Below, in pieces: positions 17,078-43,535 of a stretch of DNA of 64,000 bases. Position 1 is the first letter of the stretch. Each line of letters begins with the position of its first letter. A model generated the notes under the pieces. The model was not told where the DNA came from, made no database searches, and saw only the letters and a list, made by a program, of their open reading frames with translations. A program made the position numbers and the translations under genes. The DNA lies in assembly GCA_902799685.1 (NCBI GenBank), contig CADCBO010000005.1, forward strand, positions 62,001 to 126,000, in the 5' to 3' direction. The stretch comes from an uncultured Bacteroidales bacterium (GTDB lineage Bacteria > Bacteroidota > Bacteroidia > Bacteroidales > Bacteroidaceae).

Positions 17078-18424
17078 TTAAGGATAAGCGTTGATGACGG
17101 TGTGCAGGTATTCAAAGCGGTTGGTGAGCCAATTCTTCAGGCCCGATACCTGAGAACGGAACGTATAATTTGAGATGCCCCAGAGCGTAAGGTCATTCCT
17201 GGCCGAGCGGGAAATGGAAGTGGATGCCATGTCAATAAGGTCCAGCAGGTAAGCAAGAGTCTTTTCATGTCTTTCATTCCAGATATCCTTGACCAAATCT
17301 ACAAACTCCGGAACGCCGAACAAATCCGATATCCAATGCGGATAGCTGCCGTATTTGCCAATTCGTCTGTACGGATTCGACCCGAACACCAGATATTGGT
17401 AGTTGCCAAAAAAGGTATGTCCCCAGCCCCGTGAATCATACATATCACTCCAGTCATAGCTGAAACCGCCGTCACAGTCCCAGATGGGGCCCATCACCCA
17501 CTTTGTGGTATCGCAATAGCGGTTTATGTAACCGCTTCGGATGCTGGATCCGTTGTTCATCTCTACGTTACCCATAATCTCCTGGGCAAGCAGGTAACCC
17601 GCCATGCTCTCCACGTCAAGCACGCTACATATCTCATCCCAATCCATGGACTCTATCGCCTCCTCCAGCTCCGCAAAAGCATCCTTTACCCACTTCACTT
17701 CATACTCAGCGGCATCCTTGGGAAATTTCACGGCACAGGCTGTACCATATACATCAGACCAGAAGTTGTTTGTAGCCTTGGGCTCATCATCGGGCCCGTC
17801 ATTAACATCAAGCGCCAGCAGAATGCCCTCATCCTGATCCAGCACGACACGGTTACCACCCTCCTCCACCTGCTCGGTCACAGCATAGAGGCCCTGGTCA
17901 TCACCGTTCAGCTCCAGATGCACATAACGGATATGGTTGGCATAAGGAACCTCCAGACAGCGTGCAAGCGCAAAACCCACCAGATTCATCATGTGGGTCA
18001 CGTCACGGTAATCGGCCAGAAACACCCAGTCGCGGTTCTTGGGCAGCCCCAGGAATGAGGCCGATTCATCAAGCTTAAGCCTGTACGGTTTCTTGGCATA
18101 CCACTCCCAGGTTGAATTGCCGCGCCCGCGAATCTGCCCCTTAGCCTCAAAACCATTTACGGACTCATTGGCTGTAACAGTCACTGTACAAGGAATATAT
18201 GTCTCCTTTGAGTTTATTCTCCTGCCCCGTTCAGTCTTTATGCTGACCTCTGTAATATCAAAGTTATAGAAGCTGTCGGTGGCCGGATCCTGGAAAGTGA
18301 AAGGAACCTTCACAGGCGGCCCCTGATGCCCGGTCTCGGGTAACGTAAAATCGTCATCCTTAACGCATCCGGCCACCAGCACCAGCGCCAGCGCACCCGC
18401 CAACAGTCCTATAAAACGCCTCAT
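17078..18424 (-). CDS. CotH-kinase-like lipoprotein
   Basis: 448 aa. A lipoprotein signal ends LVAGC (Cys20). The domain is recognised by QIRGRGNSTWEWYAKKPYRLKL, the segment GLPKNRDWVFLADYRD, VTEQVEEGGNRV and the GPIWDCDGGFSYDW metal-site-like segment, all typical of the CotH family. Spore-coat CotH is an atypical protein kinase; in Bacteroidota, CotH-like lipoproteins are frequent in glycan loci and their role is not established. It is the last gene of the minus-strand PUL arm, starting 2 bp after the GH51 stop. Surface location is likely. Kinase activity here is unproven. Confidence 0.83.
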   Translation of the reverse strand: MRRFIGLLAGALALVLVAGCVKDDDFTLPETGHQGPPVKVPFTFQDPATDSFYNFDITEVSIKTERGRRINSKETYIPCTVTVTANESVNGFEAKGQIRGRGNSTWEWYAKKPYRLKLDESASFLGLPKNRDWVFLADYRDVTHMMNLVGFALARCLEVPYANHIRYVHLELNGDDQGLYAVTEQVEEGGNRVVLDQDEGILLALDVNDGPDDEPKATNNFWSDVYGTACAVKFPKDAAEYEVKWVKDAFAELEEAIESMDWDEICSVLDVESMAGYLLAQEIMGNVEMNNGSSIRSGYINRYCDTTKWVMGPIWDCDGGFSYDWSDMYDSRGWGHTFFGNYQYLVFGSNPYRRIGKYGSYPHWISDLFGVPEFVDLVKDIWNERHEKTLAYLLDLIDMASTSISRSARNDLTLWGISNYTFRSQVSGLKNWLTNRFEYLHTVINAYP

Positions 18425-18426
18425 TA

Positions 18427-20493: not shown

Positions 20494-20503
20494 AATCAAA
20501 GCC

Positions 20504-22921: not shown

Positions 22922-22937
22922 ATGCTTGGTTTTTTAT

Positions 22938-24938: not shown

Positions 24939-25002
24939 ATTATGCGTTTACGTAAATGCATAACAAAAGTAGGTCTTAACGCACCTTATCAAAACTACAA
25001 AT

Positions 25003-25039
25003 GTCCAAATATGTATAACAATAGTCCAATATTTGGATT
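25003..25039. promoter_or_regulatory. Candidate operator site 1 between GH97 and the regulator
   Basis: GTCCAAAT-A-TGTA, then after 9 bp TCCAATATTTGGAT. The same order of elements (GTCCAAAT, TGTA, TCCAA, ATTTGGA) recurs at 27768-27800 before susC. No gene ends here, so this copy is unlikely to be a terminator. It lies in the divergent intergenic region and could serve both PUL arms. Confidence 0.5.
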
Positions 25040-25087
25040 TTTGTATTATATTCGGCCCATAAACAGACAATAGCCGGAAGAAAAATA

Positions 25088-27736
25088 ATGAAAAGGATCA
25101 CAACAATATTACTCTTCATACTGCTCACATGCCTGCCCGCCCGAACATGGGCACAGACAGAGCACCGCACCCTGGACACGGGCCGAGGTTTGCCGTCAAA
25201 CACAGTCAGGGCTATCATACAGGACAGGCACGGGTTGGTATGGATAGGCACAGGTGACGGTATATGCACCTTTGACGGAAATGAGGTAACCGTAATACCT
25301 TTTGCACACGAAGGCATGAGCAATTATGTGGATTACATGCACATAGACCGCAACGGAGCCATCTGGGCCGGCACAGACGATGCCGTTTACTGTCTCAATG
25401 CCAATGACAGGGCAATCCTTGAGACCGGATTCATAACAACCGATATCATTGATGATGCCGATGGCAACATCTGGATAGGAACCCGCGACAACGGCATCTG
25501 CAGATACTCCAAAACTGCCGATGGCCGTTACGCAATGCAACAGTTCGCCCAAGGGCAGACGGTTGAGGAACTCTTTATAGACAACCGTGAAACGCTTTGG
25601 GCATTCTGCGCCGAAGGCACAATCCTTAATTATGTCTGTCAGTCCGGGACCATGAATACCGTAACACCGGTATGGAAAGAGAGATTTCCGCTGCGCGTGA
25701 CCGCAGCATACCAGGACCCCACCGGCGACATGTGGCTATGCACATGGGACAAAGGCGTATACAAACTTGACCCCAATACACTTGAAATACATAAAACCGC
25801 GTTTACAGGCGCGCCCGGAATGAACCGCATCCACTGCGCACGGAATATAGAACCTTATATACTTGTGGTAGGGTCTGATGACGGCCTGGCCAGGCTGGAC
25901 CTGCTGTCAGGAACCATGAGGACAGACTGCCGCAAGCAATTCATCTATTATATTATGGTGGATGCCGAGGATGGCCTCTGGATAGGTTCTTATTACAGCG
26001 GCATCCATTACCGCATACTTGACAACTACCGGCGCTTTATCACCTACCCTCTTTCACAGGACGACGAGTGCATAGTGAGCTGTTTCGCACAGGCACCCGA
26101 CGGCAGCATGTGGGCCGGATCCGACAACCTTGGAGTGATCCGTTTTGATGAAAACACAGGAGCTGTCACAGGACATTTTCTGACCGGCAGCAACGTGCAT
26201 TCGCTGCTTCCATGGAACGGAAAGATGCTTGTAGGCTCATACTCAGGCGGTATAGACTTACTGGATTATAGAACAGGGAGTGCCGTAAGACTTACCCATG
26301 AGAGCGTCTATTCCATGGCTTTTGACAATGAAGGTTATCTGTGGTTCGGCACCTTGAATGACATCTTCAGGATGCCCGTTCCAAATGGCACACCGGAACG
26401 AATGTATGAATCCACCGGACTGGTCTCTTCAATAAAAACCGATGCCGATGGAACCATCTGGTGCGCCACCGAAGGTTTCGGACTCCTGTCATATCATCCG
26501 GTTGAGGGCACATGGAAAAGACATTCAAACGATGACGGGATAGAAAGCGGTATCATAAACTCCCTTTTCCTTGCCGGCGGCGGCCTGCTGATAGCAGCAG
26601 GAGACAAAGGCCTCTCATATTCACGACCCGGTGCAGGCCGGTTCTCAACAATCCGTCCCAAGCAGACAGACCAGGTCCTGTTTGCCGCATCCGACGCGCA
26701 AAGCATCTGGTTTACAACCACAAACGGCCTTTACAGATATGACATGCTGGGGGATAACACAGACTATTTTGGCGGCGAGACAGGCCTTTATGAAGGGGGA
26801 TTCATTGCCGGCTCGGGGTTTGTAAGTGATGACGGCCGCATCTGGCTTGGCACCTACAAGGGAGTATCTTCATTCTACCCTGGAAACATCAGGAACAACC
26901 TGTACTCACCCGCTCCACTCATGACCGGAGTGACATTCAGGACCAAGGTCAGGGCTGGCAGGATTGACCCGGACATCAACATAAACCCTGAAGAGACAGC
27001 CAGCCGGGAGATAACCATGAAACACAAATACAACAATGTCACATTCACATACGCCGCATTAAGTTACAAGGTCCCGCAAAGAAACCGGTACATGACAATG
27101 CTTGAAGGGTTTGATGATGAATGGATTACAACAAACCTTAACAGGACAGTCTACACCAACCTTCCGGCAGGAGATTATACATTCAAGGTACGGAGCTGTA
27201 ACAGTGACGGAGTCTGGAGCAGTCAGATTACATCAGTGGCCTTCACAATACGTCCTCACATCCTTCAGAGCAACACGGCGATAATAATCTACCTTATCCT
27301 TTTTATAATAATAGCGCTTATAGGCGTACACTTTGAAAACAAGAGGGTACAGGAAATCACAGACCGTAGGATGAACAGTTTTGTTCGCGAGTTTGAAAAG
27401 ACAGAGAAGGAACGGCGCTCCATGGACTTTGAGAAAAAGATGAGAGAGATAATAGCACAGAACCTCTCCAACCCCGACCTGTCGAGCGAGATGCTTGCCG
27501 ACAGCCTGTTCGTATCCCGCTCCAGCCTGTTTGCAAAGGTAAAGGAGATAACCGGAGCCACACCACACCAGCTTATCCAGGATGCCCGCCTTGAAGAGGC
27601 TGCCAGGATGCTCTCGGAGGGCAGATATACAGTAAGCGATGTGTGTGAAAAGGTGGGATTCAACTCTTCAAACTATTTTTCAAAATGCTTTAAGCAGAAA
27701 TACGGATGCAACCCTAGAGACTGGAACAACCGATAG
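25088..27736 (+). CDS. Propeller-sensor transmembrane AraC-type regulator lacking kinase and receiver domains
   Basis: 882 aa. Signal peptide (residues 1-23, WAQ). Residues about 30-640 contain repeated [GD]-x-[LI]-W-[IVF]-G-T segments, the Reg_prop seven-bladed repeats of a sensor of the hybrid two-component type. A Y_Y_Y-like Ig domain occupies about 650-715 and a transmembrane helix about 729-749. A short charged coiled segment leads to an AraC HTH domain at about 790-882 (DVCEKVGFNSSNYFSKCFKQKYG). The HisKA, HATPase and receiver modules found between these parts in classical HTCS proteins are absent. So periplasmic ligand binding must be relayed without phosphotransfer. It should control both PUL arms. 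Confidence 0.9.
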   Translation: MKRITTILLFILLTCLPARTWAQTEHRTLDTGRGLPSNTVRAIIQDRHGLVWIGTGDGICTFDGNEVTVIPFAHEGMSNYVDYMHIDRNGAIWAGTDDAVYCLNANDRAILETGFITTDIIDDADGNIWIGTRDNGICRYSKTADGRYAMQQFAQGQTVEELFIDNRETLWAFCAEGTILNYVCQSGTMNTVTPVWKERFPLRVTAAYQDPTGDMWLCTWDKGVYKLDPNTLEIHKTAFTGAPGMNRIHCARNIEPYILVVGSDDGLARLDLLSGTMRTDCRKQFIYYIMVDAEDGLWIGSYYSGIHYRILDNYRRFITYPLSQDDECIVSCFAQAPDGSMWAGSDNLGVIRFDENTGAVTGHFLTGSNVHSLLPWNGKMLVGSYSGGIDLLDYRTGSAVRLTHESVYSMAFDNEGYLWFGTLNDIFRMPVPNGTPERMYESTGLVSSIKTDADGTIWCATEGFGLLSYHPVEGTWKRHSNDDGIESGIINSLFLAGGGLLIAAGDKGLSYSRPGAGRFSTIRPKQTDQVLFAASDAQSIWFTTTNGLYRYDMLGDNTDYFGGETGLYEGGFIAGSGFVSDDGRIWLGTYKGVSSFYPGNIRNNLYSPAPLMTGVTFRTKVRAGRIDPDININPEETASREITMKHKYNNVTFTYAALSYKVPQRNRYMTMLEGFDDEWITTNLNRTVYTNLPAGDYTFKVRSCNSDGVWSSQITSVAFTIRPHILQSNTAIIIYLILFIIIALIGVHFENKRVQEITDRRMNSFVREFEKTEKERRSMDFEKKMREIIAQNLSNPDLSSEMLADSLFVSRSSLFAKVKEITGATPHQLIQDARLEEAARMLSEGRYTVSDVCEKVGFNSSNYFSKCFKQKYGCNPRDWNNR

Positions 27737-30800: not shown

Positions 30801-30943
30801 TGCTCTGCATCACTGGATACAAGGGCATCGATCCTGAAATGTCTTACGGTGATATCTACTCATTCGGTGTGGACTACCGCAACAAGTATCCCACAATCCG
30901 TACATTCACATTTGGTGTTAACTTCACTTTCGGTGACAAATAA
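27884..30943 (+). CDS. SusC-type TonB-dependent outer-membrane transporter
   Basis: 1019 aa. Signal peptide through residue about 32 (SASAQ), a carboxypeptidase-regulatory-like domain at about 36-115 (VSGVVSDESGEPIIGAG...), then the SusC hallmark DEVVVIGYGTQRKGDIT, the plug domain with LILVDGIEGSLETV and AAIYGTRGASGVILITTK, and a beta-barrel ending FTFGVNFTFGDK. There is no extra sigma/anti-sigma STN domain. It imports oligomers captured by its SusD partner, driven by TonB. It is the first gene of the plus-strand arm and susD follows 18 bp later. The ligand cannot be read from sequence. Confidence 0.95.
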   Translation: MRIIQRKRIRMAAIALLAMIGFSMVPSKASAQGTISVSGVVSDESGEPIIGAGILQIGTSVGTTTGLDGDYKLTVNRGATLRVSYLGYKTVEVKADNPIINITLQEDLLSLDEVVVIGYGTQRKGDITSSVSSVKAEDFITGYVGDAAQLVKGKVPGLSVTKGNGDPKSSSTIMLRGVTSLMGGYTPLILVDGIEGSLETVAPESIEEISVLKDASAAAIYGTRGASGVILITTKTGKRGEHHSVSYSGYASASNFSKKIEFMDADFIRDLIANGQAEYSAFGDLGATTDWLGLVSRTGFTQNHNLALEGGTDNMAYSANITWNDDNGVMKGSFSNDLRVQMDITQYLFGDIVKLNMNLLKTLSKSDNQDSYTIYHQAVIRNPTMPVYREDGDYYEQSAPLYYYNPIPYINEHEGDSRSESTRMTGNITVTPLAGWETNLQLSRRSNNGLNEYYNTPLYQGNRWGGVNGSAGKSQSDFVQDMLELTSKYEQDWGRHHFNGMLGYSWMESTSTGFGASNSEFPTDAYLYNALQRGKYAELLYSDPEDKSTAYLKTYGSVSSYKNESRLIGFFGRVSYGYDNRYNVLVSFRREGSTKFGADHKWGNFPAISGGWTLSNEKWLRRVKWLDNLKLRAGYGVTGVIPQSSYMSLLLYDYDTSYGNYVDSDGNWRPSLTTIQNPNDDLRWEKTAELNAGIDFGFFDGRLFGSVDVYSKKTTDMLWEYNVPVPPNLYNLQTANVGEMDNRGIEIMLGGTPFRTKDFEWTTTLTMSHNKNILVSLSNDLYETDNYIDAGWLEEPTSMPTQRVYEGHSVGDFYMLKSTGLSNSKKGKGYWMIENPETGKSEMFVSGMRDADSKYRQYMGSGLPKINIGWSNTFRYKNFDLALQMSGAFGHMIYNSQRMFYENLNIGLNRYKSAVDPVYGRTLSTSQEPVAVSYYLEKGDYVKLDNATFGYNFNTKNWKYIDKARVYVSGTNLLCITGYKGIDPEMSYGDIYSFGVDYRNKYPTIRTFTFGVNFTFGDK

Positions 30944-32916: not shown

Positions 32917-34749
32917 ATGAGAAAATTTTTCAGATTCGCAACAATGGCTCTTGTAGCCATAGCCATCACAGCTTGTGACAAAGATGACAAAAAGACTATT
33001 GCACCGGATAATGGTGGTGATGAGGACTACAAGGAGATAACTGTCTCCTGCTCTATCGACCTTATGGCAGGCATAGAGACCGTTGGATACAGCATGGGAG
33101 AGATGTCCATGCCGGGCGACAAGATCCTGGAGTTCTTTGACATGACCGCCAAGGAGTTCTACAAGGCAATGGGAACCTACACAGGTGCCGCCGGCGCAAC
33201 CACACAGGTTGACAACACCATCCAGTTTGGTGTCTGCACAGGCAACAACATTGACAAGATGAATTTCTGCCCTTCAAGCAGCAACAATTTCGGTTGCTGG
33301 ATGACTGCCGGATCAGCAGTTACCACATGGGGTGACGATGCAGTATTCTATCATGAGAGCGTTGTCGAGTGGGGTCTTGAGGATCCCGATGAGGAGACTC
33401 TTGCCAACATGTGGACATTCGGAATCGGTTTCTACCCCGGCCACAACGATTATAAGGCTGGCGACAAGGTAAAGGCTACATACTTCTTCCTCAAGGAGGC
33501 CGAAGAGGAAGGCGAGCCCGACCTGTACTGCTATGTAGAGATGATTTTCAACATCGTTGAGGCCGAGGAGGTTGAGCTGAACGTTGTCGAGACCAGGCAG
33601 CTCAATTACACAGCAGATTTTGATGATGAATACATCCACTATGCTATCGACCTGCCTGTCGATGATATCCTGGCCAAGATTGGCGTAGATGCACAGAGCG
33701 CAAAGGCATACGCTGTAAATCCTGACGGTTCATTCTCAGCAACCATGGGTAACAACTTCTGGTTCATGAAGGACGGTACAGCAGGTTCATGGGGTGAAGG
33801 TGCAGCCATCTGCCTGAACAACAACGAGCAGGATCACTGGATCTTCTGCATGTTCCCCGATGAGACACTTGCCGGAACCACCCTTAACGGTGCCATTGCA
33901 TTTGCCAACGACAAGGGCGAAGCATACGTAATCAAGGTTGCTGTTGCTGTTACCGGCATTGACTATACCGCTATCAACGTAATGGCTTCTTATGAGACCG
34001 GTGAAGTTGAATACACACTCTCCGAAAACAACTTAGCTGCCATTTATGCTGCCCTGGGCGTTGATTCCGTTGACCTGTCAACCGTAACCCTGTTCGGCGT
34101 TAACGCAGACGGCTCACGCTATGATGGTAATTTCACCGCCAACAACGGTTACTGGTACCTGGCTAACGGTAACGTATCAGACTACGGCACCGTAACTTCA
34201 GATCCTGACTGCGGCGGTTTCATTGAGTACAGAGGCGAAAACACATTCGGCTGCGGACTCTGGAGAGAGAGCGGCGAGACTTCAACCTTCATGATTGGCC
34301 TTGAGCTTGGTGAAAAGACCTGCGTGCTTACATTCACAATCACAGTTGACGAGCCTGCCATTATTGAAACCGAACAGGTTGACGCAGTTAACCTTACTGC
34401 ATCACAGGCTCTGGCAGATGGCTACGCCGGTGAGCTGGTTGAGATCTCTGGCATTCTTGAGAAACTGGGCGCAACCGACATCACCATCCTTGATACCGAA
34501 GGCGGATATGATTACACAGCCAACAGCGGTTTCTGGTTCGATGCTGAAGGAAATATTGTAGGTTGGGGCGATGCCTATTTCTTTGTAGAGCCCGGCTACA
34601 ATGATGGTGGAGAGTTCCTGGGTCTGCAGACCGGCATTCATCCTGATCATGCAACCGCAGGTGCTTCATACACGGCAACATTCCGCGTAGCAGACCTCAA
34701 CACAATGAAGCATGTCACTGTTACTCTGACAGTTAACATTACTGAATAA
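32917..34749 (+). CDS. Surface lipoprotein with four DUF4859-like units
   Basis: 610 aa. Lipobox AITAC (Cys20). Four similar units of about 120-130 residues, each with an N-[NS]-G-[FY]-[WC]-[FYM] strand (NNFWFMKDGTAGSWG, NNGYWYLANGNVSDYG, NSGFWFDAEGNIVGWG, and a looser first copy NNFGCWMTAGSAVTTWG) and an acidic beta-rich remainder. I match this to DUF4859, which has no assigned function. Position right after susD suggests a SusE/F-like surface binding protein, perhaps with one ligand site per unit. It is very acidic. A short family A hairpin (A5) follows. Confidence 0.75.
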   Translation: MRKFFRFATMALVAIAITACDKDDKKTIAPDNGGDEDYKEITVSCSIDLMAGIETVGYSMGEMSMPGDKILEFFDMTAKEFYKAMGTYTGAAGATTQVDNTIQFGVCTGNNIDKMNFCPSSSNNFGCWMTAGSAVTTWGDDAVFYHESVVEWGLEDPDEETLANMWTFGIGFYPGHNDYKAGDKVKATYFFLKEAEEEGEPDLYCYVEMIFNIVEAEEVELNVVETRQLNYTADFDDEYIHYAIDLPVDDILAKIGVDAQSAKAYAVNPDGSFSATMGNNFWFMKDGTAGSWGEGAAICLNNNEQDHWIFCMFPDETLAGTTLNGAIAFANDKGEAYVIKVAVAVTGIDYTAINVMASYETGEVEYTLSENNLAAIYAALGVDSVDLSTVTLFGVNADGSRYDGNFTANNGYWYLANGNVSDYGTVTSDPDCGGFIEYRGENTFGCGLWRESGETSTFMIGLELGEKTCVLTFTITVDEPAIIETEQVDAVNLTASQALADGYAGELVEISGILEKLGATDITILDTEGGYDYTANSGFWFDAEGNIVGWGDAYFFVEPGYNDGGEFLGLQTGIHPDHATAGASYTATFRVADLNTMKHVTVTLTVNITE

Positions 34750-34773: not shown

Positions 34774-34807
34774 AATACAGGGGACGGAATGTCCCGTCCC
34801 CTGTATT
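34774..34807. repeat. Family A palindrome A5 (GGGGACGG type), short form
   Basis: A perfect 14-bp stem AATACAGGGGACGG / CCGTCCCCTGTATT with a 6-nt loop, followed by a T-rich stretch. It is inside the PUL operon between the DUF4859-type gene and HExxH protein 1, so it could partly terminate transcription after the binding proteins. Confidence 0.8.
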
Positions 34808-34837: not shown

Positions 34838-36619
34838 ATGCGCAAAATCCTATTCCTTTCAGCCGTGGCATTGACCATGCTGGCATCATGCACAAAAGAT
34901 GAAGAAGAAGCCATTGGGCCGGATCCCAATGACAAGTTTGACTCGTCAATAACTCTTACCGCCAACGATGTTGACCTCCCGGCCGAGAAGGACGGTACGG
35001 CTTTCATCCGTCTTACGGTAGATCATGAGTGGTATCTGGTATCGACCGACAAGGAGGAACAGGAGTGGCTCAAGGCTGACCTGACCCACGGTGTGGCCAC
35101 CAAGAACAAGAAAATAGTCTTTACCGCCCTTGAGGAGGGCCTGGCCGAGACCCGTACCGCCAAGTTCAAGATAGTGTCCGGTGCCAACAGCAAGAAGTTC
35201 ACCGTGACCCAGAGCCGCAAGTGCCTTATCCTGACCCAGGACGAAGTACAGGATTTTGCCAAATACTACAAACCCCTGGAGTTTGATTTTGACATGCTGC
35301 GCTCCGATAGCAAATGGAGCTGGTGCCGTAGCAAGCAGACAGAGCACGTGATTGTGTTCTGGGACAAGCAGTACGGCGAATACGGACTGTACGGAGAGCG
35401 CATGGGCATAGAGAACACATCGCCCTCCACCTGCAAGAGTTCAAAGATGAAGGTTGATATAGATGACCTGCTTGCAAAAGCTGAACAATTCTATAAGATA
35501 AATACGGAGACACTCAAGTTCTCCGAGCCGGGAACAGGCAAATCTGTCCTTGACGACTATAAGTTTGAAATATATCTCCTCTACCAGTCAGAGTGGCTTG
35601 CCACCGGTAGCGGATATGACAATATGATTGGCGCGCTCTGGGTTAATCCCAGCACCTGCCAGCCCGTGGGCAGCACCATAGCCCATGAGATAGGCCACAC
35701 ATTCCAGTACATGACATTCTGTGACTGGCTCAAGAACCAGGGAATCCCTGCCGCACAGCGTCCCTACGTCAACACAAACCAGGGCCCCGGATGGCGTTAC
35801 GGATTCGGTCAGAACGGAGCCGGCGGAAACTGCTTCTGGGAGCAGTGCGCACAATGGCAGAGTTTCCAGACCTACAAGGATGAGGCCTTTGAGAACTACA
35901 ATTTCAGTGCCTTCTGCTCACAGACCCATCTGCACGTACTGCATGAGACTCCGCGCTACGCCAACTACTTCATACAGTGGTGGTGGTGCCATAACAACAA
36001 TGACATCACTTTCCTGAGCAAGATGTGGCGCAACTCACAGTACCCCGAAGATCCCTGCGACACCTATATGCGCCTTATGGACTACGATGTGGCCGCATTC
36101 AATGACGACATCTGGAAATATGCCGCACACTGCATGACATTCGATATGGACGAGATCCGCACCAACGGCCACAAATACATAGGCAAGACCGCCATAGCAT
36201 CATCGGCCATAACAGGTGTAGATACAGACTGGTGGCGCATATCGGCTTCAAAGGCCCCTGAGTCCACAGGCTCCAACGCAGTAAGGATGACGGTACCTAA
36301 AGGCGAGACCGTAAAAGTTACCCTTCAGGGTCTTAGTGAACTGGCAGGCTGCACCGTTGGTCCCGCCAACCTGGCAGGATGGCGCTACGGATTTGTAAGC
36401 TACAACACTGACGGTACCACTACCTATAGTGATATATGGAGCGCTCAGGATGCAGAGCAGTCATTCACAGTTCCGGCTAACAGCCAGTATCTATGGTTTG
36501 TGGTAACCGGTGCCCCCACCAAGTACATCAGGCATCCCTGGGGTAATGATGACGGCAAGCCCATATCAGTATGGCCCTGGCAAGCCAAATTTGACGGCAC
36601 AAAACCCTACGGTAAGTAA
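34838..36619 (+). CDS. Putative zinc-peptidase lipoprotein 1 (BACON domain + HExxH domain)
   Basis: 593 aa. Lipobox MLASC (Cys18). Residues about 40-128 read as a BACON domain ending KKFTVTQSR. The central domain has HEIGHTFQ (His283, Glu284, His287) and, 48 residues on, FWEQCAQW with Glu335 as a possible third ligand, the arrangement of a gluzincin metallopeptidase. The C-terminal part (residues about 455-585) is beta-rich with YLWFVVTGAP. It resembles DUF6055-type proteins of unknown function, but I could not confirm that. It is homologous to the product of 42216-43535. BACON domains are thought to bind mucin-like glycoprotein. Peptidase activity is inferred only from the motif. Confidence 0.78.
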   Translation: MRKILFLSAVALTMLASCTKDEEEAIGPDPNDKFDSSITLTANDVDLPAEKDGTAFIRLTVDHEWYLVSTDKEEQEWLKADLTHGVATKNKKIVFTALEEGLAETRTAKFKIVSGANSKKFTVTQSRKCLILTQDEVQDFAKYYKPLEFDFDMLRSDSKWSWCRSKQTEHVIVFWDKQYGEYGLYGERMGIENTSPSTCKSSKMKVDIDDLLAKAEQFYKINTETLKFSEPGTGKSVLDDYKFEIYLLYQSEWLATGSGYDNMIGALWVNPSTCQPVGSTIAHEIGHTFQYMTFCDWLKNQGIPAAQRPYVNTNQGPGWRYGFGQNGAGGNCFWEQCAQWQSFQTYKDEAFENYNFSAFCSQTHLHVLHETPRYANYFIQWWWCHNNNDITFLSKMWRNSQYPEDPCDTYMRLMDYDVAAFNDDIWKYAAHCMTFDMDEIRTNGHKYIGKTAIASSAITGVDTDWWRISASKAPESTGSNAVRMTVPKGETVKVTLQGLSELAGCTVGPANLAGWRYGFVSYNTDGTTTYSDIWSAQDAEQSFTVPANSQYLWFVVTGAPTKYIRHPWGNDDGKPISVWPWQAKFDGTKPYGK

Positions 36620-36630
36620 AACATCAAATT

Positions 36631-38211
36631 ATGAGAAATAAATTCTTGGCGGCTGCACTGACAATCTTTGCAGCAGCGCTATCCACAGGTTGTGAGAAAG
36701 AGGAATCCGGCGTGTACGGCCCTGTCATTACCGACCAGATCTTTACGGAATGGCCGGGCTGGAACAAGGCTATACACTATGATTTCAACGAACTCACAGA
36801 CAAGCCTTCAAAACCTACCAAGAATCTTCCGTACAATACCAATCTGTACAAAAGCTACAGTGGAGAGTACTGGTCATTCTTTGTAGGCAAGAACGCCAAC
36901 CCGCTTGTCAAGGACAATGAGACGGCTGCCACAGAGATGCTTAAACGTCTTGACGCCGATTTCTCATACATATCGGATGTAATGGGATGGCCCAGAGATA
37001 TGCCGGTTCAGAACGGATACCGCAGTGCCGTGTTCCTTTACGGATCCGGTCTATCCACCGACAACGCATCGAATGAGGACAAGGGAGGCTGGCAGAGTGC
37101 CGTATATGTAGGCGGCAAGTCCTGGCCCATCATCCTGGCATCATATTATCCGGTCTATTGCTTTGATCCGGAATGTCCCTACGCAGACCGTGAATCGCAG
37201 ATGAGCGCCATGGTCCATGAGGGTATCCATGCCGTCTTTGCATCAATGCCCGGTTGCCGTAAGGCCAGTTGGTTCCATGAAGGCGCCAACTGCTGGCTGC
37301 AGGCCACAATGACATATGAGCAGCAATACGGAAAGGAGTATGTAGCCAATGACTTTGGATGGCTCTCCATGGGTTCCATCCTTGCCCCCTTCCAGCCCAT
37401 CGAGTGCTACTCCGGCTGGCTTACCGACGGTACCTTTGGAGGACCCGGTGCCGAGGGTGTGAACGGCGCCGCCCCGACCGGAAATGTACGCGCCATAATA
37501 GGCGGATCACAGTACAGTGAGGTATTCCCCACATTCCTGGGCGAGATTGTTGACTACAACGCCGTACCATGGGTATGGATGAACTGCACAGGCTATGTAC
37601 TTGAAGGTATTGCCGATAAGATCGGGGCTGACAGCATACATACCATGATACAGGAGTACCGCGCACGTCTGGCGCTTTGCGACTTTGGAAAGTATTCACA
37701 GGCTGTCAACCACATGTATAACAACTACATGGGAACGGTCATAGAATCAGAGAGCTGGAGCGTTTACAGCAAGCCGTGGCGTGCCACTCCCTACCAGCCC
37801 ACAACCCTTGATGATGACGGATGGCTTGTGCCCGACCCCACCACCACTCCCGGATGGTCAGGAGCAAACATAATACCCATTGCAGTTGAAAGTTCACCGC
37901 TTACTGTAAGCTTTAAGCCGTACGGAGAACTGTCAACCACAGAGAACATGAGCTGCCAGCTCTGCTATCGCACCAAAGAGGGCGTTACGGTTTACAGCCA
38001 GCCTTTCAGCAATGGCAGTTTCACCATGAACTTTGACAAGTACAAACCGGCCAACGGTGTGGTTTTTGCCGTTGTATGTAACCTTGACTACAAGTTTACC
38101 GGCAACACCAAGATACGCAAGAATCATTATGATTACCGCATCAAACTGAGCAAGAACGCCCATACCGCCAATGTCTATGGCAAATGGTTCAATTGGGATC
38201 AGGAACTTTAA
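36631..38211 (+). CDS. Putative zinc-peptidase lipoprotein 2 (HExxH)
   Basis: 526 aa. Lipobox ALSTGC (Cys21). MVHEGIHAVF (His196, Glu197, His200), then 17 residues after the second His, SWFHEGANCW with Glu217 as the probable third metal ligand. That spacing suits a gluzincin. Residues about 420-526 form a beta-sandwich-like tail with many Tyr/Asn. The HExxH and E-x(3)-[QN]-x-W pattern relates it to lipoproteins 1 and 3, but overall similarity is lower. It begins 11 bp after lipoprotein 1, so they are co-translated. It has eight or more Cys, unusual for a periplasmic or surface protein and possibly disulfide-bonded. Function is inferred. Confidence 0.75.
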   Translation: MRNKFLAAALTIFAAALSTGCEKEESGVYGPVITDQIFTEWPGWNKAIHYDFNELTDKPSKPTKNLPYNTNLYKSYSGEYWSFFVGKNANPLVKDNETAATEMLKRLDADFSYISDVMGWPRDMPVQNGYRSAVFLYGSGLSTDNASNEDKGGWQSAVYVGGKSWPIILASYYPVYCFDPECPYADRESQMSAMVHEGIHAVFASMPGCRKASWFHEGANCWLQATMTYEQQYGKEYVANDFGWLSMGSILAPFQPIECYSGWLTDGTFGGPGAEGVNGAAPTGNVRAIIGGSQYSEVFPTFLGEIVDYNAVPWVWMNCTGYVLEGIADKIGADSIHTMIQEYRARLALCDFGKYSQAVNHMYNNYMGTVIESESWSVYSKPWRATPYQPTTLDDDGWLVPDPTTTPGWSGANIIPIAVESSPLTVSFKPYGELSTTENMSCQLCYRTKEGVTVYSQPFSNGSFTMNFDKYKPANGVVFAVVCNLDYKFTGNTKIRKNHYDYRIKLSKNAHTANVYGKWFNWDQEL

Positions 38212-38226
38212 AACATCTGGAGTACA

Positions 38227-39216
38227 ATGCATAGGAAAACGATAAACCACGCTCTGTTACTTGCTGCATTGGTGCTGACATGCGCCTGCAATAAGGATGA
38301 AGAAGAGTCTTTTATGTCACTTGACTACGGATTCACAGACTACTCTGCCGCAAAAATCACGGGTGAAGTTGTTACTGCACAAGCAGAAGTGGAACTTAAC
38401 CAGGTCTATGACGTAACCCCCATCACGATAGACAAAAGTCTTGTAACCAAGCAGCTGGGCGTAAAGAAAGTTCCCTCTGACCTGGTATTTGCAGGTGTAC
38501 GCTCAAACGGTTCTCTGCTTTGCGGGCCCAGGTATTACACATCGGCCGGCGGATTCTACTTTGATTCAGAAGGCTATGCATGCCAGCCCTCAGACCCGGA
38601 TGTAAAACTGTTTGTGGATGCAACCAATAATTTCACGCTCAGCATAGGCATAATTCCCGATGCCACGGAGCAGGGCCAGGAGTACGTCATTCATGCCGCC
38701 TACGCGACTGCAAATGCCGCCTGCGCGCTTGATATCACCGTAACCGTCACCGGCAAGTCTGCCTGGGCCGATTATACGGTATCAGAAGACGGTCTAACCT
38801 ACTACATCAAGGAGAAAGTAAAGACTGATTATACTCCACTGTCTGTATTCATCAATGAAAAGAGCGTGTGCGATGCTCTGGGAATAAACAGTTTTGCCCA
38901 GCTGATTAGCGGCCTTAACAATGGTGATATAGTTTACTACGGCGTGAACGCCGATGGCACGGACTGGACCAACGGCAACACCGCCAACGGCAAAGGCTGC
39001 TGGTATGACAAATCGGGCAACGTATGCAGTTGGAAGGCTGATAACTGGTTCTGCTATGCCGAATGGGATGGCAGTTCCAACCCCGTATTCTTTAATGTAG
39101 GCCAAGCCACCGCAGGTGTAGAGGTTGGCGACAGCGCCACCGTACGCTGCCGTTTTATAAAAGGAGACAAATCCGTTACATTGAATTTTCAAGTTACAAT
39201 AGTTGACAAGCTGTGA
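38227..39216 (+). CDS. Lipoprotein with two DUF4859-like units
   Basis: 329 aa. The N-terminus is hydrophobic with a Cys-rich lipobox-like end (LVLTCAC). Two units carry SAGGFYFDSEGYACQPSD and ANGKGCWYDKSGNVCSWKADNWFCY strands, matching the units of the 610-aa protein at 32917. It is probably another surface binding or accessory subunit. It lies 15 bp after lipoprotein 2, and its TGA stop overlaps the GTG start of the next gene (GTGA), which indicates translational coupling to the glycosidase. Confidence 0.7.
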   Translation: MHRKTINHALLLAALVLTCACNKDEEESFMSLDYGFTDYSAAKITGEVVTAQAEVELNQVYDVTPITIDKSLVTKQLGVKKVPSDLVFAGVRSNGSLLCGPRYYTSAGGFYFDSEGYACQPSDPDVKLFVDATNNFTLSIGIIPDATEQGQEYVIHAAYATANAACALDITVTVTGKSAWADYTVSEDGLTYYIKEKVKTDYTPLSVFINEKSVCDALGINSFAQLISGLNNGDIVYYGVNADGTDWTNGNTANGKGCWYDKSGNVCSWKADNWFCYAEWDGSSNPVFFNVGQATAGVEVGDSATVRCRFIKGDKSVTLNFQVTIVDKL

Positions 39217-42077
39217 GAACCAGGATCCTTATAATGTCAGTATTGGCACTTGCTTTTTGCTCATGTGCCAGGCGCAGTCAGCTGCGAACCATCAGTAGTG
39301 TAGAACCGGTATCTGTAGAGACACCTGCGGGTACGGTTGCAAGACTGCCTTGGCAGGTACGCGTCACATACAGTGACGGCAAGACAGAGCTCAGGCAGAC
39401 TGTATGGACTAACTCTGCCGCCGATATCGAGCGTGAGCAGGCCGATGCCTCAAAACATCCCGCCGGCAGCACATATACTGTAGAAGGATTCATTACAGGC
39501 GATAACACTACTGCTTCCGGTTTTCCTATTGAGGCCACCGTTACGGTTACAGAACATGCATGGAATATCCCCGGCAGGCAGCCTGTTGCCAATCCCCTAC
39601 CCCTAGGCAGCGTAAGGCTCATAGGCGATAACCGACTCACATCCAACCGCGACCTTGACATCCGTGCCCTGCTGGCCCTTGACGTTACACAGCAGCTATA
39701 CAACTACCGTGACACATACGGACTTAGCACAGAGGGCTACACCGTTTCAGACGGTTGGGACTCACCCCACACCAAGCTTAAAGGCCACGGAACCGGGCAT
39801 TATCTCTCTGCATTGGCATTCGCATACGCCGGAACCGATGATCCCGCAATGCGCCGTGAGCTTATGGACAGGATACGCCGTATGGTTGATGAGATGCGTG
39901 CCTGCCAGGAACTTACATTTGTATATGACAAGAAGCTTGGCCGTTACCGTGAGGCGCGTGACCTGGCACCCGAGAAAGAACTCATGGAGCTTAAAGGCAC
40001 ATGGGATGCATTTGACAAATACAAAAAAGACTGTAGCATTTATGGCTACGGCTATCTGAACGCCATACCGGCACAGCATGCAGTATTGATAGAGAAATAC
40101 GCAGCCTATAACAATGAGAGCGGAGTCTGGGCCCCCTACTATACCATCCACAAACAGCTGGCAGGACTCATAGACATAGCCATGAACGTGGATGATGAGC
40201 AGGTGGCACAGAAGGCTCTGCTGATAGCCCATGATATGGGCCTGTGGGTATGGAACCGTCTGCATTACCGCACCTACGTAAAGACCGACGGCACACGCGC
40301 CGACCGTCAGGCCCGCCCCGGCAACCGCTATGAGATGTGGAACATGTACATAGCCGGCGAGGTTGGAGGTATGGCAGAGTCCCTGTCACGTCTGGCCGAA
40401 CTATCCACCGATGCCACTGACCGCAGTCGCTTTATCGAGGCCGCATCGTACTTTGATTCACCCGCCTTCTTTGACCCGCTGTCACAGAACATAGATGATA
40501 TACGTACGCGTCATGCCAACCAGCACATACCAATGATTACCGGTGCGCTGCGTTCTTATCGGACAAACGGAAAGGCCTATTACTACAATCTGGCATACAA
40601 TTTCTGGAACATGATACAAGGCCGCTATGTCTATGCCATGGGCGGCGTGGGCAACGGAGAGATGTTCCGCCAGCCCTACACCCAGATACTGAGCATGAAC
40701 ACCAATGTCATGTCCGATTACCGACGCAACATCTACCCCAACCCCAACATAAACGAGACTTGCTGCGCCTACAACCTGGCCAAGCTGACCAAAGACCTGA
40801 ACTGCTTTGACCCGGACAACGCACAGTATATGGATTACTATGAGCGTGTGCTCTACAACCAGCTTGTAGGATCCGTGCATCCTGAGCACTACAGCGTGAC
40901 CTACCAGTACGCCGTGGGCATGAACGCATCCAAGCCGTGGGGCAATGAGACGCCTCAGGAGAGCTGCTGCGGCGGTACAGGGACCGAGAACCACGTCAAG
41001 TATCAGGAGGCAGCCTATTTTGTATCGGACAACACCATGTGGGTGGCATTGTATCTGCCTACCGAGGCTCGTTGGCAGCAGAAAGGCGTTACTCTTAGAC
41101 AGGAATGCCTGTGGCCTGCTGAGAGCTCCGTAATTACCGTAACTGACGGCAGCGCTGAATTTGCGCTCAAACTGCGCGTTCCCTATTGGGCAACAGATGG
41201 ATTCACCGTTAAGCTGAACGGACGTACCATCTTTAAGAAATGCCAGCCCTGCAGCTATGTGGAGATTCCGCTGCGCACATGGAGCAAGGGTGACCGTGTA
41301 GAGATAACTATGCCTTTCAGCAAGCATATCAACTGGGGCCCCGACAAGATGGACCTGGCAGCCACAGGAATGGGCCAGACCAACACTCCGTTCGCCCCGC
41401 AGTGGGTAGGCGCGCTCATGTACGGCCCGTTGGTAATGGCTGCAAGCGATATCACATCGTGGAATGATGCAGAGTTTGACATAACAGCAAACCTGAGCGA
41501 TGTGGAGGTTCATCCCGTAACCGCCGCCGGTGGAACTGACGGAAACATGTATTCCCTTAGCTTTGCCGGGCATACATTCCGCCCCGACTATTGGATTCGT
41601 GACAACTCCACGCACTATCTGCGTCTTAACGTGCTTAGCGGCAAGCAGAAAGGCTCATCGGCCAAACGCGGCGGCATTGATACACGTGAGCTTGAGCAGA
41701 CACTACGTAGCGCACAGGAACGTGCCGCAGATAAGGAAGCATGGGCTCCGCACGGATATGCCCGCATGAAAGAGTGCATGGAATCAGCCCAAAAACTGCT
41801 TGACGCCACTGGTGTTGACCAGAAGATGATTGATGATGCCGTATCGGCCCTTAAGGCAGCCTTAGCGGTAATGCGTCCTGGTAATCTGGCTGAACCAGAG
41901 GACCTTAATGAGCTAGTCATTCTGGTAACAGACTGCAAGGAGAATATACCCAACAAGACCACCCAGCTGCGCGAGGCCATAACCTACGCCGACATGGTAA
42001 TCCAATACGTTAATGACGGCAGCGGCACGCACGATATGATCGAGAATGCCCTCACCCGCCTAAAAAGCGCAAAGTGA
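39213..42077 (+). CDS. Multidomain GH127/GH146-type beta-L-arabinofuranosidase
   Basis: 954 aa, GTG start at 39213 inside the stop of the previous gene. A later ATG at 39234 would lose the basic N-region of the signal (MRTRILIM...CSC). Domains: N-terminal Ig-like (Big_4 type, residues about 28-115), catalytic alpha/alpha barrel (about 130-790), and two FIVAR-like helical repeats (about 825-950). The catalytic zinc site can be read as Glu515 and Cys517 in INETCCAYN, plus Cys585-Cys586 in ESCCGGTGTENH, which is closer to GH146 than to the GH127 at 20504. FIVAR repeats often mediate binding to sugars or surfaces. It should cleave beta-L-Araf, perhaps with a linkage different from the first enzyme. 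Confidence 0.83.
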   Translation: MRTRILIMSVLALAFCSCARRSQLRTISSVEPVSVETPAGTVARLPWQVRVTYSDGKTELRQTVWTNSAADIEREQADASKHPAGSTYTVEGFITGDNTTASGFPIEATVTVTEHAWNIPGRQPVANPLPLGSVRLIGDNRLTSNRDLDIRALLALDVTQQLYNYRDTYGLSTEGYTVSDGWDSPHTKLKGHGTGHYLSALAFAYAGTDDPAMRRELMDRIRRMVDEMRACQELTFVYDKKLGRYREARDLAPEKELMELKGTWDAFDKYKKDCSIYGYGYLNAIPAQHAVLIEKYAAYNNESGVWAPYYTIHKQLAGLIDIAMNVDDEQVAQKALLIAHDMGLWVWNRLHYRTYVKTDGTRADRQARPGNRYEMWNMYIAGEVGGMAESLSRLAELSTDATDRSRFIEAASYFDSPAFFDPLSQNIDDIRTRHANQHIPMITGALRSYRTNGKAYYYNLAYNFWNMIQGRYVYAMGGVGNGEMFRQPYTQILSMNTNVMSDYRRNIYPNPNINETCCAYNLAKLTKDLNCFDPDNAQYMDYYERVLYNQLVGSVHPEHYSVTYQYAVGMNASKPWGNETPQESCCGGTGTENHVKYQEAAYFVSDNTMWVALYLPTEARWQQKGVTLRQECLWPAESSVITVTDGSAEFALKLRVPYWATDGFTVKLNGRTIFKKCQPCSYVEIPLRTWSKGDRVEITMPFSKHINWGPDKMDLAATGMGQTNTPFAPQWVGALMYGPLVMAASDITSWNDAEFDITANLSDVEVHPVTAAGGTDGNMYSLSFAGHTFRPDYWIRDNSTHYLRLNVLSGKQKGSSAKRGGIDTRELEQTLRSAQERAADKEAWAPHGYARMKECMESAQKLLDATGVDQKMIDDAVSALKAALAVMRPGNLAEPEDLNELVILVTDCKENIPNKTTQLREAITYADMVIQYVNDGSGTHDMIENALTRLKSAK

Positions 42078-42080
42078 CAT

Positions 42081-42172
42081 ATTGGGAAACACATTGGGGA
42101 CGGTTCTCTGTGTGTTTGCCAAACTCGTGGGTTTGGAACACACAGAGAACCGTCCCCAATGTGTTTCCCAAT
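42081..42172. repeat. Family A palindrome A6 (GGGGACGG type), 36-bp arms
   Basis: Perfect arms 42081-42116 and 42137-42172 with core AACACATTGGGGACGGTTCT. It lies 4 bp after the glycosidase stop and 44 bp before the third HExxH gene. It is nearly the same as A4 and A7. Confidence 0.9.
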
Positions 42173-42215
42173 GCGTCCCCAGAATGAGAGACTATATTTC
42201 AAAAAAGATGGAATT

Positions 42216-43535
42216 ATGAAATTGAACAGTATTATAATCAACTTTGTCGCAATGTTAGCACTGGCGGCTTGCGGTAAAAGCATCGATAAACAGGTGTATA
42301 TTCCGCGGGATTTGCAGGGTATGAACCTGAGCGATACCGCATCGGAATACTGTTTTCAGCGCAGTATTTCCACACGTGACATTATAGTATTCTGGGAGAA
42401 AGGATTCGGTCCTGATGTATCAAAAGCTCCTGATTATAAAGGTCATAAGATGACCGCCAATCTGGACAATCTGCTCACACAATCTCAGTATTTCTACGAT
42501 TTCTTTAAGGATACGCTCCACTTTATCACACCGGAATCGGCCGCTGACAGCCTTAAGATGATGATAATGCTGCGATATGATGATGAGGGAACGGCTTACG
42601 GAGGTGATTATGATGAAAAGATTGGCGCGCTTTGGGTTACGCCGCTGCGTACGCAGGATGAGCGGATGAATTGCATCGCCCATGAACTCGGACACAGTTT
42701 CCAGAGCCAACTGGCCATAGACAACAACAGCGGATTTGGCGGCGGAGGCATTTATGAAATGACATCCCAATGGATGCTGTGGCAGGTCAATCCCCTATGG
42801 GTTGAGGATGAGGAGTATCATTGGGATGCATTCATGAAACAGACTCATCTGGCATTCATGCATCCGGAGAACATGTATCATTCTCCATATGTATTGGAGT
42901 ATTGGTCAGAGAAGTACGGAAAGCAGTTCATTGCAGACCTTTGGCGTTCGGCCCGTAAGCGACACGATGTGGTGGCTGTATATGAGGATATGAAGGGCAT
43001 TGACGATGCCGCATTTGGCCAAGAGATGCTTGATGCAGCGCGTCACTTTATGACGTATGATATGCCCCGGATACGCAGCGTGATGAAACCATACGCCAAT
43101 AGGCATAGCTCCACGTTACAGCCTGCCGATGAAGACGGATGGCAACGCATTGCCGATGATCGTGTTCCGCAGCAGTATGGTTATAACGGCATATCGCTGA
43201 ACGTTCCTGATGCAGGCCAGACGGTTACCGTAAGCGTGAAAGGAGTGTTCAATCCAGGCCGTACAACCTATGCCGAATCAGATGAATACGTACGTAACGC
43301 AGCTTGGAGCTTTGGTCTGGTAGGAGTGAAGCAGGACGGTTCATGTATCTATTCTGAGACAGCAGTCTCAACTATCGGACGTAACGGTACGGTAAGTATA
43401 ACGGCTCCCCTTGGAGAGCCGCTATCATATCTTTGGCTGGTAGTTGTACCAACACCTTCCAAGCATCAGGATGTGCTTGAAGAAAATGCTGCTGATTACG
43501 TAAACTACCCCTACTCCATCCAAATTAAGGAGTAA
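42216..43535 (+). CDS. Putative zinc-peptidase lipoprotein 3 (HExxH)
   Basis: 439 aa from ATG 42216. The frame opens at 42159 within palindrome A6, but 42216 gives the lipoprotein signal MKLNSIIINFVAMLALAAC (Cys19). HELGHSFQ (His156, Glu157, His160) is followed by IYEMTSQW with Glu181. It shares with lipoprotein 1 the block [DH]-[IV]-I-V-F-W-[ED]-K, the KIGALWV strand before the HExxH and the C-terminal YLWLVVVPTP strand, but it lacks the BACON domain. The gene is bracketed by palindromes A6 and A7, which share the same core, and may be a separately acquired cassette. Confidence 0.77.
   Translation: MKLNSIIINFVAMLALAACGKSIDKQVYIPRDLQGMNLSDTASEYCFQRSISTRDIIVFWEKGFGPDVSKAPDYKGHKMTANLDNLLTQSQYFYDFFKDTLHFITPESAADSLKMMIMLRYDDEGTAYGGDYDEKIGALWVTPLRTQDERMNCIAHELGHSFQSQLAIDNNSGFGGGGIYEMTSQWMLWQVNPLWVEDEEYHWDAFMKQTHLAFMHPENMYHSPYVLEYWSEKYGKQFIADLWRSARKRHDVVAVYEDMKGIDDAAFGQEMLDAARHFMTYDMPRIRSVMKPYANRHSSTLQPADEDGWQRIADDRVPQQYGYNGISLNVPDAGQTVTVSVKGVFNPGRTTYAESDEYVRNAAWSFGLVGVKQDGSCIYSETAVSTIGRNGTVSITAPLGEPLSYLWLVVVPTPSKHQDVLEENAADYVNYPYSIQIKE

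What the first reader, a model, noticed from the sequence alone, without database searches (positions are those of the whole stretch)
17078..43535. Candidate new glycoprotein-degrading locus: three putative zinc peptidases with alpha- and beta-L-arabinosidases
Three lipoproteins with HExxH and a downstream E-x(3)-[QN]-x-W glutamate are encoded with GH127, a GH146-like enzyme, GH51, a retaining GH97, SusC/D, two DUF4859-type binding proteins and a BACON domain. GH127/GH146 enzymes act on beta-L-Araf, found on hydroxyproline-rich plant glycoproteins. A locus that strips arabinose and also cuts the protein core is a plausible, undescribed strategy for extensin or arabinogalactan-protein use.
Basis: partly seen in the sequence, partly recalled or inferred. 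Interest (0 to 1): 0.85.

Follow-up and report, generated by a model that had tools for sequence, protein, structure and literature searches.

The report
Gut bacterial locus likely digesting extensins
A herbivore-gut bacterium carries a gene cluster that seems built to cut, import and strip arabinose- and galactose-coated plant wall proteins such as extensin, using enzymes related to a plant pathogen's extensin-cutting protease.

Summary
Two HExxH proteins are DUF6055; 49 of 50 aligned DUF6055 proteins match the Svx model. Svx is a zinc peptidase reported in 2026 to cleave carrot extensin (PMC13164431). A confident DUF6055 model (pLDDT 92) matches gluzincin aminopeptidases modestly, plus jelly-roll domains. 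The third belongs to a family without a Pfam model, distantly related, HExxH-x16-E invariant in 28 of 28. GH97 is nearest retaining alpha-galactosidases, so the enzymes fit both extensin sugar links. In 27 genomes, GH97 or GH127 lies within 10 kb of 12 and 13 of 36 DUF6055 loci, against 3 and 6 of 146 other listed SusD loci. A few loci carry arabinose-catabolism or proline-peptidase-type genes. Signal sequences suggest one DUF6055 outside, one inside. Most likely: cut glycosylated wall protein at the surface, import glycopeptides, strip them inside. Substrate untested; Svx's sugar-pocket W-G is absent.

The parts
17078..18424 (-). CotH-family (kinase-like fold family) lipoprotein with acidic residues after the lipobox cysteine (CVKDDD)
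   Evidence: PF08757 3.8e-39; CotH relatives in 18 of 80 named DUF6055 loci, one of them fused to DUF6055 in L214
18427..20562 (-). GH51 alpha-L-arabinofuranosidase with CBM4_9-type N-terminal domain
   Evidence: PF22848 2.1e-58, PF06964 3.3e-32; nearest solved structure 6zps MgGH51 273 bits
20504..22921 (-). GH127 beta-L-arabinofuranosidase with C-terminal F5/8-type domain
   Evidence: PF07944 4.7e-123; 6ex6 1057 bits, HypBA1 3wkw 348 bits
22938..24938 (-). GH97, retaining alpha-galactosidase type
   Evidence: PF10566 3.6e-90; 3a24/5e1q retaining alpha-galactosidases 525 bits vs SusB about 96 bits; NF053844 655 bits, below its cut-off of 800
25088..27736 (+). regulator: Reg_prop beta-propeller, Y_Y_Y, a hydrophobic segment, AraC-type HTH; no histidine kinase domain found
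   Evidence: Pfam scan; hydrophobic segment read from the sequence
27884..30943 (+). SusC-type TonB-dependent transporter
   Evidence: PF07715, PF00593, PF13715
30962..32875 (+). SusD-type lipoprotein
   Evidence: PF07980 5.6e-17
32917..34749 (+). lipoprotein with four DUF4859 stretches, presumed glycan or glycopeptide binder
   Evidence: PF16151 2.6e-26, 4 stretches
34838..36619 (+). DUF6055 peptidase 'a': BACON plus DUF6055, HEIGH283 then E335; lipobox followed by KDEEE, predicted surface-exposed
   Evidence: PF19527 2.1e-127, BACON 1.9e-06; NF040510 5.4e-08; acidic signal
36631..38211 (+). HExxH lipoprotein of a family without a Pfam model, HEGIH196-x16-E217; distant relative of DUF6055
   Evidence: no Pfam hit; 28 aligned members with invariant H196 E197 H200 E217 N220 Q224; hhalign to DUF6055 94.8%, E 5e-08
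38227..39216 (+). lipoprotein with two DUF4859 stretches
   Evidence: PF16151 3.4e-21, 2 stretches
39213..42077 (+). GH146-like beta-L-arabinofuranosidase, with sub-threshold FIVAR and Ig-like matches
   Evidence: PF07944 5.4e-54; nearest solved structures 5opj 163 bits, 8k7y 99 bits
42159..43535 (+). DUF6055 peptidase 'b': HELGH175-x20-E200-x3-QW; lipobox without acidic signal, predicted periplasmic
   Evidence: PF19527 2.6e-121; NF040510 5.6e-17; AlphaFold2 pLDDT 92.2, pTM 0.89; Foldseek hits ERAP1 and CBM folds; signal

Best explanation
This is a SusC/D glycan-utilization locus adapted to a glycoprotein: arabinosylated, alpha-galactosylated hydroxyproline-rich plant wall protein of the extensin type. 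Inferred order: (1) at the cell surface the BACON-DUF6055 peptidase (34838), and in this strain the HExxH protein at 36631, cut the still glycosylated protein, helped by DUF4859 binding lipoproteins and perhaps the CotH protein; (2) SusC/D imports glycopeptides; (3) in the periplasm GH51 removes alpha-L-Araf caps, GH127 and the GH146-like enzyme remove beta-L-Araf from hydroxyproline, GH97 removes Ser-linked alpha-galactose, and the second DUF6055 peptidase (42159) cuts further; (4) arabinose enters the ara pathway. Supported by computation: families, invariant metal-ligand residues, fold of 42159, gene association, signal-sequence split. Inferred: substrate, order, localisation, any catalytic activity.
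For: The Svx model is matched by 49 of 50 DUF6055 proteins in A2, best 2.9e-23. Svx cleaves carrot extensin but not mucin or concanavalin A (PMC13164431, Results section read); it is stopped by EDTA and 3.1- to 3.5-fold less active with either motif Glu changed (PMC9266454, Results part 1 of 2 read). Confident model with gluzincin-type Foldseek matches. GH97 nearest retaining alpha-galactosidases. In the same 27 genomes, within 10 kb: GH97 at 12 of 36 DUF6055 loci vs 3 of 146 other listed SusD loci (Fisher 2.0e-07), GH127 13 vs 6 (1.1e-06), both 7 vs 0 (7.1e-06); over 43 genomes 18, 13 and 7 of 63 loci. The association also appears outside the window's order, e.g. G261 with GH97, DUF6055, GH146-like neighbours. 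In L163 a symporter, araD, araA, a sugar kinase, GH51, CotH and DUF6055 lie in a row on one strand; L188 has AraA and a sugar kinase before DUF6055. S9 DPP-IV-type genes in 7 of 80 loci and M24 Xaa-Pro aminopeptidase-type genes directly downstream in 4 of 80, by clustering with 2 and 1 members scanned. Acidic post-lipobox signals on 13 of 21 lipobox-bearing DUF6055 'a', 6 of 10 CotH, 4 of 7 DUF4859 'a', 10 of 21 SusD, but 0 of 20 DUF6055 'b' and 0 of 7 lipobox-bearing GH127, GH97 or GH146-like proteins. Own genome has AraA.
Against: No substrate or activity data. The Svx scores shown for window proteins (61.8 and 31.9 bits) are far below the equivalog cut-off of 625. The Svx/M60 alpha-sugar pocket residues W136, G137, N171 (PMC9266454 passages) are not kept: positions H-4/H-3 are N (44 of 50) and C (34 of 50), and Gln stands for Asn in 50 of 50. 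The Svx LbH domain needed for extensin was not found in the window proteins. Of 80 named loci 36 have an alpha-galactosidase or GH127/146 in the stretch held, 44 do not; of the 48 stretches of at least 17 kb, 26 do, so some DUF6055 loci may serve other substrates. Only 6 of 18 CotH loci have such an enzyme in the stretch. Three of 20 locus GH97s lack the retaining-type motif. The fold match to ERAP1 is modest (TM 0.38 by query). In the lipobox scan most DUF6055 'b' (59 of 79) gave no lipobox, and 7 of 42 SusC proteins gave presumably false ones. GH127's best PDB relative, 6ex6, is by recall an arabinogalactan-locus enzyme. GH51 is in 1 of 80 loci. Genomes are related to one another, so P values overstate independence.
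Confidence: 0.6

Rival explanations
1. The locus targets arabinogalactan-protein or gum arabic: beta-L-Araf caps are removed by GH127/GH146, alpha-Araf by GH51, and the peptidases open the AGP protein core.
For: GH127 is closest to 6ex6, which I recall as an enzyme of a B. thetaiotaomicron arabinogalactan locus; PMC10850190 passages state that BT3674, a GH127, aids larch AG breakdown and that beta1,3-Araf ends AGP chains. AGP is also hydroxyproline-rich.
Against: No GH16, GH30, GH43, GH35 or uronidase family was found among the 13 locus proteins scanned. An alpha-galactosidase neighbour is not expected for a beta-galactan. GH43 proteins in three relatives scanned (L173, L219, L191) are of unknown subfamily.
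Confidence: 0.15
2. A pectic arabinan or RG-II side-chain locus in which DUF6055 and the 36631 family act on a non-protein bond or are accessory binding proteins rather than peptidases.
For: GH127 and GH146 enzymes also act on arabinan and RG-II (PMC10850190 passages); GH127 here has 462 bits to the aceric acid hydrolase model, below its cut-off of 950.
Against: Invariant HExxH plus E in 50 of 50 and 28 of 28; the related Svx is a tested peptidase (PMC9266454); no pectate lyase, GH28, GH43 or GH78 in the 13 locus proteins scanned.
Confidence: 0.12
3. The peptidases cut glycoproteins in general, including host mucin, and the arabinosidases sit beside them because the locus is a composite.
For: BACON domains are linked by recall to mucin binding; relatives occur in Bacteroides isolates; the DUF6055 fold resembles M1-type gluzincins.
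Against: No sialidase, fucosidase or hexosaminidase family in the 13 locus proteins scanned; Svx did not cut mucin (PMC13164431); the association with plant-sugar enzymes recurs outside the order.
Confidence: 0.08

Closest known systems
Svx/AvrXca peptidases (NCBIfam NF040510) of plant-associated bacteria
   Same: HExxH plus downstream Glu, detectable homology (49 of 50), secreted; Svx is reported to cleave extensin (PMC13164431)
   Different: window proteins score far below the family cut-off; the LbH domain was not found; sugar-pocket W-G absent and Asn replaced by Gln; here lipoproteins inside a SusC/D locus of a gut bacterium
DUF6055 (PF19527), discussed with peptidase family M106 in PMC11241649 (one passage)
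   Same: two window proteins match over nearly the whole model
   Different: nothing for these two; the 36631 family is only a distant relative
Bifidobacterium longum and Xanthomonas euvesicatoria HypBA1/HypBA2/HypAA systems for Hyp-linked arabino-oligosaccharides
   Same: GH127 beta-L-arabinofuranosidase plus an alpha-L-arabinofuranosidase on extensin sugars (PMC6085000 passages)
   Different: no GH121 match here; GH51 in place of GH43; adds GH97, SusC/D and peptidases
Bacteroides GH97 retaining alpha-galactosidase (3a24)
   Same: 525 bits over 623 residues
   Different: placed with peptidases and beta-arabinosidases
M60 O-glycopeptidases of mucin users (e.g. ZmpB)
   Same: gluzincins acting on O-glycosylated proteins, named in PMC9266454 as nearest fold of Svx (passages)
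   Different: not among the 50 of 1150 Foldseek rows shown for the DUF6055 model; sugar-pocket residues differ

Membership tests
DUF6055 (PF19527) | score above Pfam cut-off of 27 bits | tested here: met
   426 and 405.9 bits for 34838 and 42159; 36631 has no hit
Gluzincin metallopeptidase | HExxH plus downstream Glu, conserved | tested here: met
   invariant in 50 of 50 DUF6055 and 28 of 28 of the 36631 family; spacing x47 in 34838 is outside x8-28
Gluzincin metallopeptidase | fold with HExxH and Glu on successive helices, metal site geometry | tested here: inconclusive
   42159 model: helix 152-170 carries HExxH, helix 179-191 carries Glu181 (numbering of the 439-residue model); Foldseek ERAP1 prob 1.00 but TM 0.38; distances not measured; 34838 not modelled; 36631 model unusable, pLDDT 36.7
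Gluzincin metallopeptidase | zinc-dependent proteolysis | not testable with these tools
   needs protein
Svx (NF040510) | score above equivalog cut-off 625 bits | tested here: not met
   61.8 bits for 42159, 31.9 for 34838
Svx (NF040510) | W-G before HExxH and Asn 4 after Glu (sugar pocket) | tested here: not met
   mostly N and C, and Gln in 50 of 50; residues from PMC9266454 passages
Svx (NF040510) | C-terminal LbH (hexapeptide) domain | tested here: not met
   no such Pfam match; 42159 model's C-terminal part matches CBM jelly-roll folds
Retaining GH97 alpha-galactosidase | closest to retaining alpha-galactosidases, and the nucleophile-region motif G-x-K-[IV]-D-F | tested here: met
   525 vs 96 bits; GFKIDF in the window protein, motif in 17 of 20 locus GH97s; meaning of the motif recalled; score below NF053844 cut-off
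GH127 | catalytic, middle and C-terminal GH127 domains above cut-off | tested here: met
   PF07944, PF20736, PF20737
GH146 | closest characterised relative is GH146 | tested here: met
   5opj 163 bits vs GH127 6ex6 42 bits; that 5opj is BT0349, GH146, is recalled; no GH146-specific model was run
Polysaccharide utilization locus | SusC and SusD pair with glycan-degrading enzymes and a regulator | tested here: met
Extensin utilization system | induction by and growth on extensin | not testable with these tools
   needs cultures

The most novel reading that the evidence does not exclude
A widespread commensal glycoprotein-utilization system: gut and other Bacteroidota carry dedicated loci for extensin-type proteins in which two paralogous Svx-like peptidases are split between cell surface ('a') and periplasm ('b'), with CotH and DUF4859 partners, a second new HExxH family in some strains, and alpha-galactosidase plus beta-arabinosidases matched to the substrate's two sugar links. 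The protein core as well as its sugars would be food, a route I did not find assigned in print for plant wall structural protein in rumen and colon.
Probability: 0.5. Interest if true: 0.75.

Novelty: new variant of a known kind. Interest (0 to 1): 0.62.

Why it matters
Extensins lock plant walls together. If gut Bacteroidota have dedicated loci for them, this would give a function to DUF6055, DUF4859 and the CotH proteins beside them, name a source of arabinose, galactose and peptides for rumen and colon bacteria, and show a shared enzyme lineage between commensal feeding and a plant pathogen's virulence peptidase. It makes a direct test possible in named species such as Bacteroides cellulosilyticus DSM 14838 and Bacteroides ihuae, which hold DUF6055 loci.

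Tried and rejected
36631 in viral contigs: no match. Viral fold library for the DUF6055 model: partial-length matches, many to phage tail proteins, nothing useful. Sequence search of the PDB with DUF6055 and 36631 profiles: nothing useful; the latter only Ig-like and type IX secretion-tail matches to fused domains.

Idea that 36631 always sits beside DUF6055: rejected; the long forms lie elsewhere in their genomes. The genomes with it (3 of 395; 29 of 66) all hold DUF6055, but the 66 were chosen for that. Idea that every PF19527 hit in the phylum is the same system: set aside; 86 of 395 genomes match and 47 pass the cut-off, but I count 12 with E below 1e-60.

A uniform-position null (expected 2.07 GH97, 1.66 GH127 at 63 loci) was judged too easy, so other SusD loci were used. 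Limits of that control: one search listed 150 of 854 SusD matches, the best-scoring ones, from 27 of 43 genomes; 4 near DUF6055 were taken out; GH and DUF6055 listings were also cut at weaker scores; one search omitted one GH127 place of G459, restored on the DUF6055 side (the only listed G459 SusD is on another contig). One search compared 63 loci of 43 genomes with 146 of 27 genomes; one search repeats it on the same 27. A bound from counts alone is weaker: 243 GH97 and 187 GH127 for 854 SusD. Promoter scan: at chance level.
Full report
The region 17078-43535 is a divergent locus between a phosphorylase/glycogen-synthase pair and a V-type ATPase subunit gene. The minus arm reads GH97, GH127, GH51, CotH; the plus arm reads regulator, SusC, SusD, DUF4859, BACON-DUF6055, an HExxH protein without a Pfam family, DUF4859, a GH146-like enzyme, DUF6055. 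The genome held is a 2.81 Mb, 86% complete assembly in which these two are the only PF19527 matches, with one AraA. The closest named relative of the 42159 protein, 98% identical, is in a Bacteroidaceae MAG from yak reticulum (L161).

Peptidases. Two of the three HExxH proteins are DUF6055 members. NCBIfam's Svx/AvrXca model matches 49 of 50 DUF6055 proteins of alignment A2. A2 holds 48 of the 49 non-redundant relatives listed (plus-strand, under 620 aa, 82 before redundancy removal) and the two window proteins. Bit scores are shown only for window proteins, 61.8 and 31.9 against a cut-off of 625. Svx is stopped by EDTA and weakened by changes of either motif glutamate (PMC9266454, Results part 1 of 2), and cleaves carrot extensin but not mucin or concanavalin A, with an arabinan-recognising domain required (PMC13164431, Results and Discussion part 1 of 2). 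PMC10815107 was seen as abstract only. The model of the 42159 protein is confident (pLDDT 92.2, pTM 0.89); the best Foldseek row is ERAP1, a gluzincin aminopeptidase (probability 1.00, TM 0.38), and several other top rows are jelly-roll carbohydrate-binding modules or lectin domains. Against a simple transfer from Svx, its sugar-pocket W and G are replaced and its Asn is Gln in 50 of 50.

The 36631 protein has no Pfam hit. Relatives are in 3 of 395 phylum genomes including this one and 29 of 66 genomes chosen for having DUF6055. In 28 aligned members H196, E197, H200, E217 are invariant. Profile comparison with DUF6055 gives 94.8% probability, E 5e-08; 3 of 28 match PF19527 weakly and 10 of 28 match DUF4859 at E up to 0.01, recalling the separate DUF4859 gene downstream here. 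It lies beside DUF6055 in the window, in G538 and G510 and, on the other strand, in G222; in G343 the neighbour is a broken DUF6055 stretch. It was not found in the same-genus genome G537 or in locus L161, so it is an optional cassette.

Sugars. GH97 is nearest retaining alpha-galactosidases (525 vs 96 bits for SusB); 17 of 20 locus GH97s including the window's carry a G-x-K-[IV]-D-F motif and 3 do not. With GH127, a GH146-like enzyme and GH51, the set fits Hyp-linked beta-L-Araf chains with an alpha-L-Araf end, and Ser-alpha-Gal, the extensin pattern described in PMC6085000 (passages) and PMC9266454 (passages).

Gene association. Strong DUF6055 matches (E below 1e-60 by my count) are in 12 of 395 phylum genomes; 88 of 201 genomes of the window's family have a match. 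On the same 27 genomes, GH97 lies within 10 kb of 12 of 36 DUF6055 loci against 3 of 146 listed SusD loci away from DUF6055, GH127 13 against 6, both 7 against 0; over 43 genomes the DUF6055 figures are 18, 13 and 7 of 63 (Fisher). Among 80 named loci (the best 80 of at least 504), by similarity clustering: GH127/146 in 26, GH97 19, GH27 4, SusC 37, SusD 39, CotH 18, DUF4859 22, two or more DUF6055 in 33; alpha-galactosidase or GH127/146 in 36, both in 13. So 44 of 80 lack either, partly because stretches are short; of 48 stretches of at least 17 kb, 26 have one. The named and unnamed sets overlap (L173 is the G238 contig by length). Fusions of DUF6055 with CotH (L214) and with DUF4859 (L191, L203) support a common function. 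L163 puts a symporter, araD, araA, a sugar kinase, GH51, CotH and DUF6055 in a row (the symporter by clustering with a scanned relative). S9 DPP-IV-type peptidases (7 of 80) and M24 Xaa-Pro aminopeptidase-type proteins (4 of 80, in two kinds of surroundings) hint at a proline-rich chain; the one S9 and one M24 member run against NCBIfam score below the cut-offs of the models they match.

Localisation. A lipobox scan gives acidic, surface-type signals on many DUF6055 'a', CotH, DUF4859 and SusD proteins and on none of the lipobox-bearing DUF6055 'b', GH127, GH97 or GH146-like ones (meaning of the acidic signal recalled; 'a' and 'b' assigned by the better match to the two window proteins; 7 of 42 SusC gave presumably false lipoboxes). 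This gives the model: cut at the surface, import, strip and cut again inside.

Literature limits. Searches for DUF6055, DUF4859, extensin with PULs, gut Bacteroides, rumen Prevotella, HypBA1, and CotH with PULs (listings) showed no description of such a locus. PMC4454575 (passages) infers extensin use in Latescibacteria from GH127.

Verdict: real, partly anticipated by Svx work, most likely an extensin-type glycoprotein utilization locus; substrate unproven.

Noticed in passing
window 25088-27736: The regulator has propeller, Y_Y_Y and AraC HTH domains but no kinase or receiver match, while the 31 clustered relatives have a median of 1,324 aa; a shortened membrane regulator.
   Followed up: partly
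window 34774-34807: A 14-pair hairpin followed by a T-rich stretch lies between the first DUF4859 gene and the first DUF6055 gene; it may lower expression of downstream genes relative to SusC/D.
   Followed up: no
window 17078-18424; L214 6473-9862: CotH-family proteins recur in 18 of 80 DUF6055 loci and one is fused to DUF6055; why a kinase-like protein belongs to a surface peptidase locus is unexplained.
   Followed up: partly
L163 565-11386: Arabinose catabolism genes, GH51, CotH and DUF6055 form one co-directional row in a Candidatus Cryptobacteroides MAG.
   Followed up: partly
L204 7630-9852; L198 11488-13413: A 630-750 aa protein without any Pfam match sits just before DUF6055 and GH97 in four loci (L204, L205, L222, L224; L204 scanned); a different 641 aa protein without Pfam match lies between DUF6055 and GH97 in L198.
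   Followed up: no
L189, L195, L199, L233, L235, L237: Fasciclin-domain proteins (two members scanned) and another SusC/D pair precede DUF6055 in a second locus type of Prevotella-like MAGs, without the arabinosidases in the stretch held.
   Followed up: no
G343:C1:799502-799708: A DUF6055 fragment with stop codons lies beside an intact 36631-type gene in a 5.4 Mb genome of another order; a second DUF6055 is 13 kb away.
   Followed up: no
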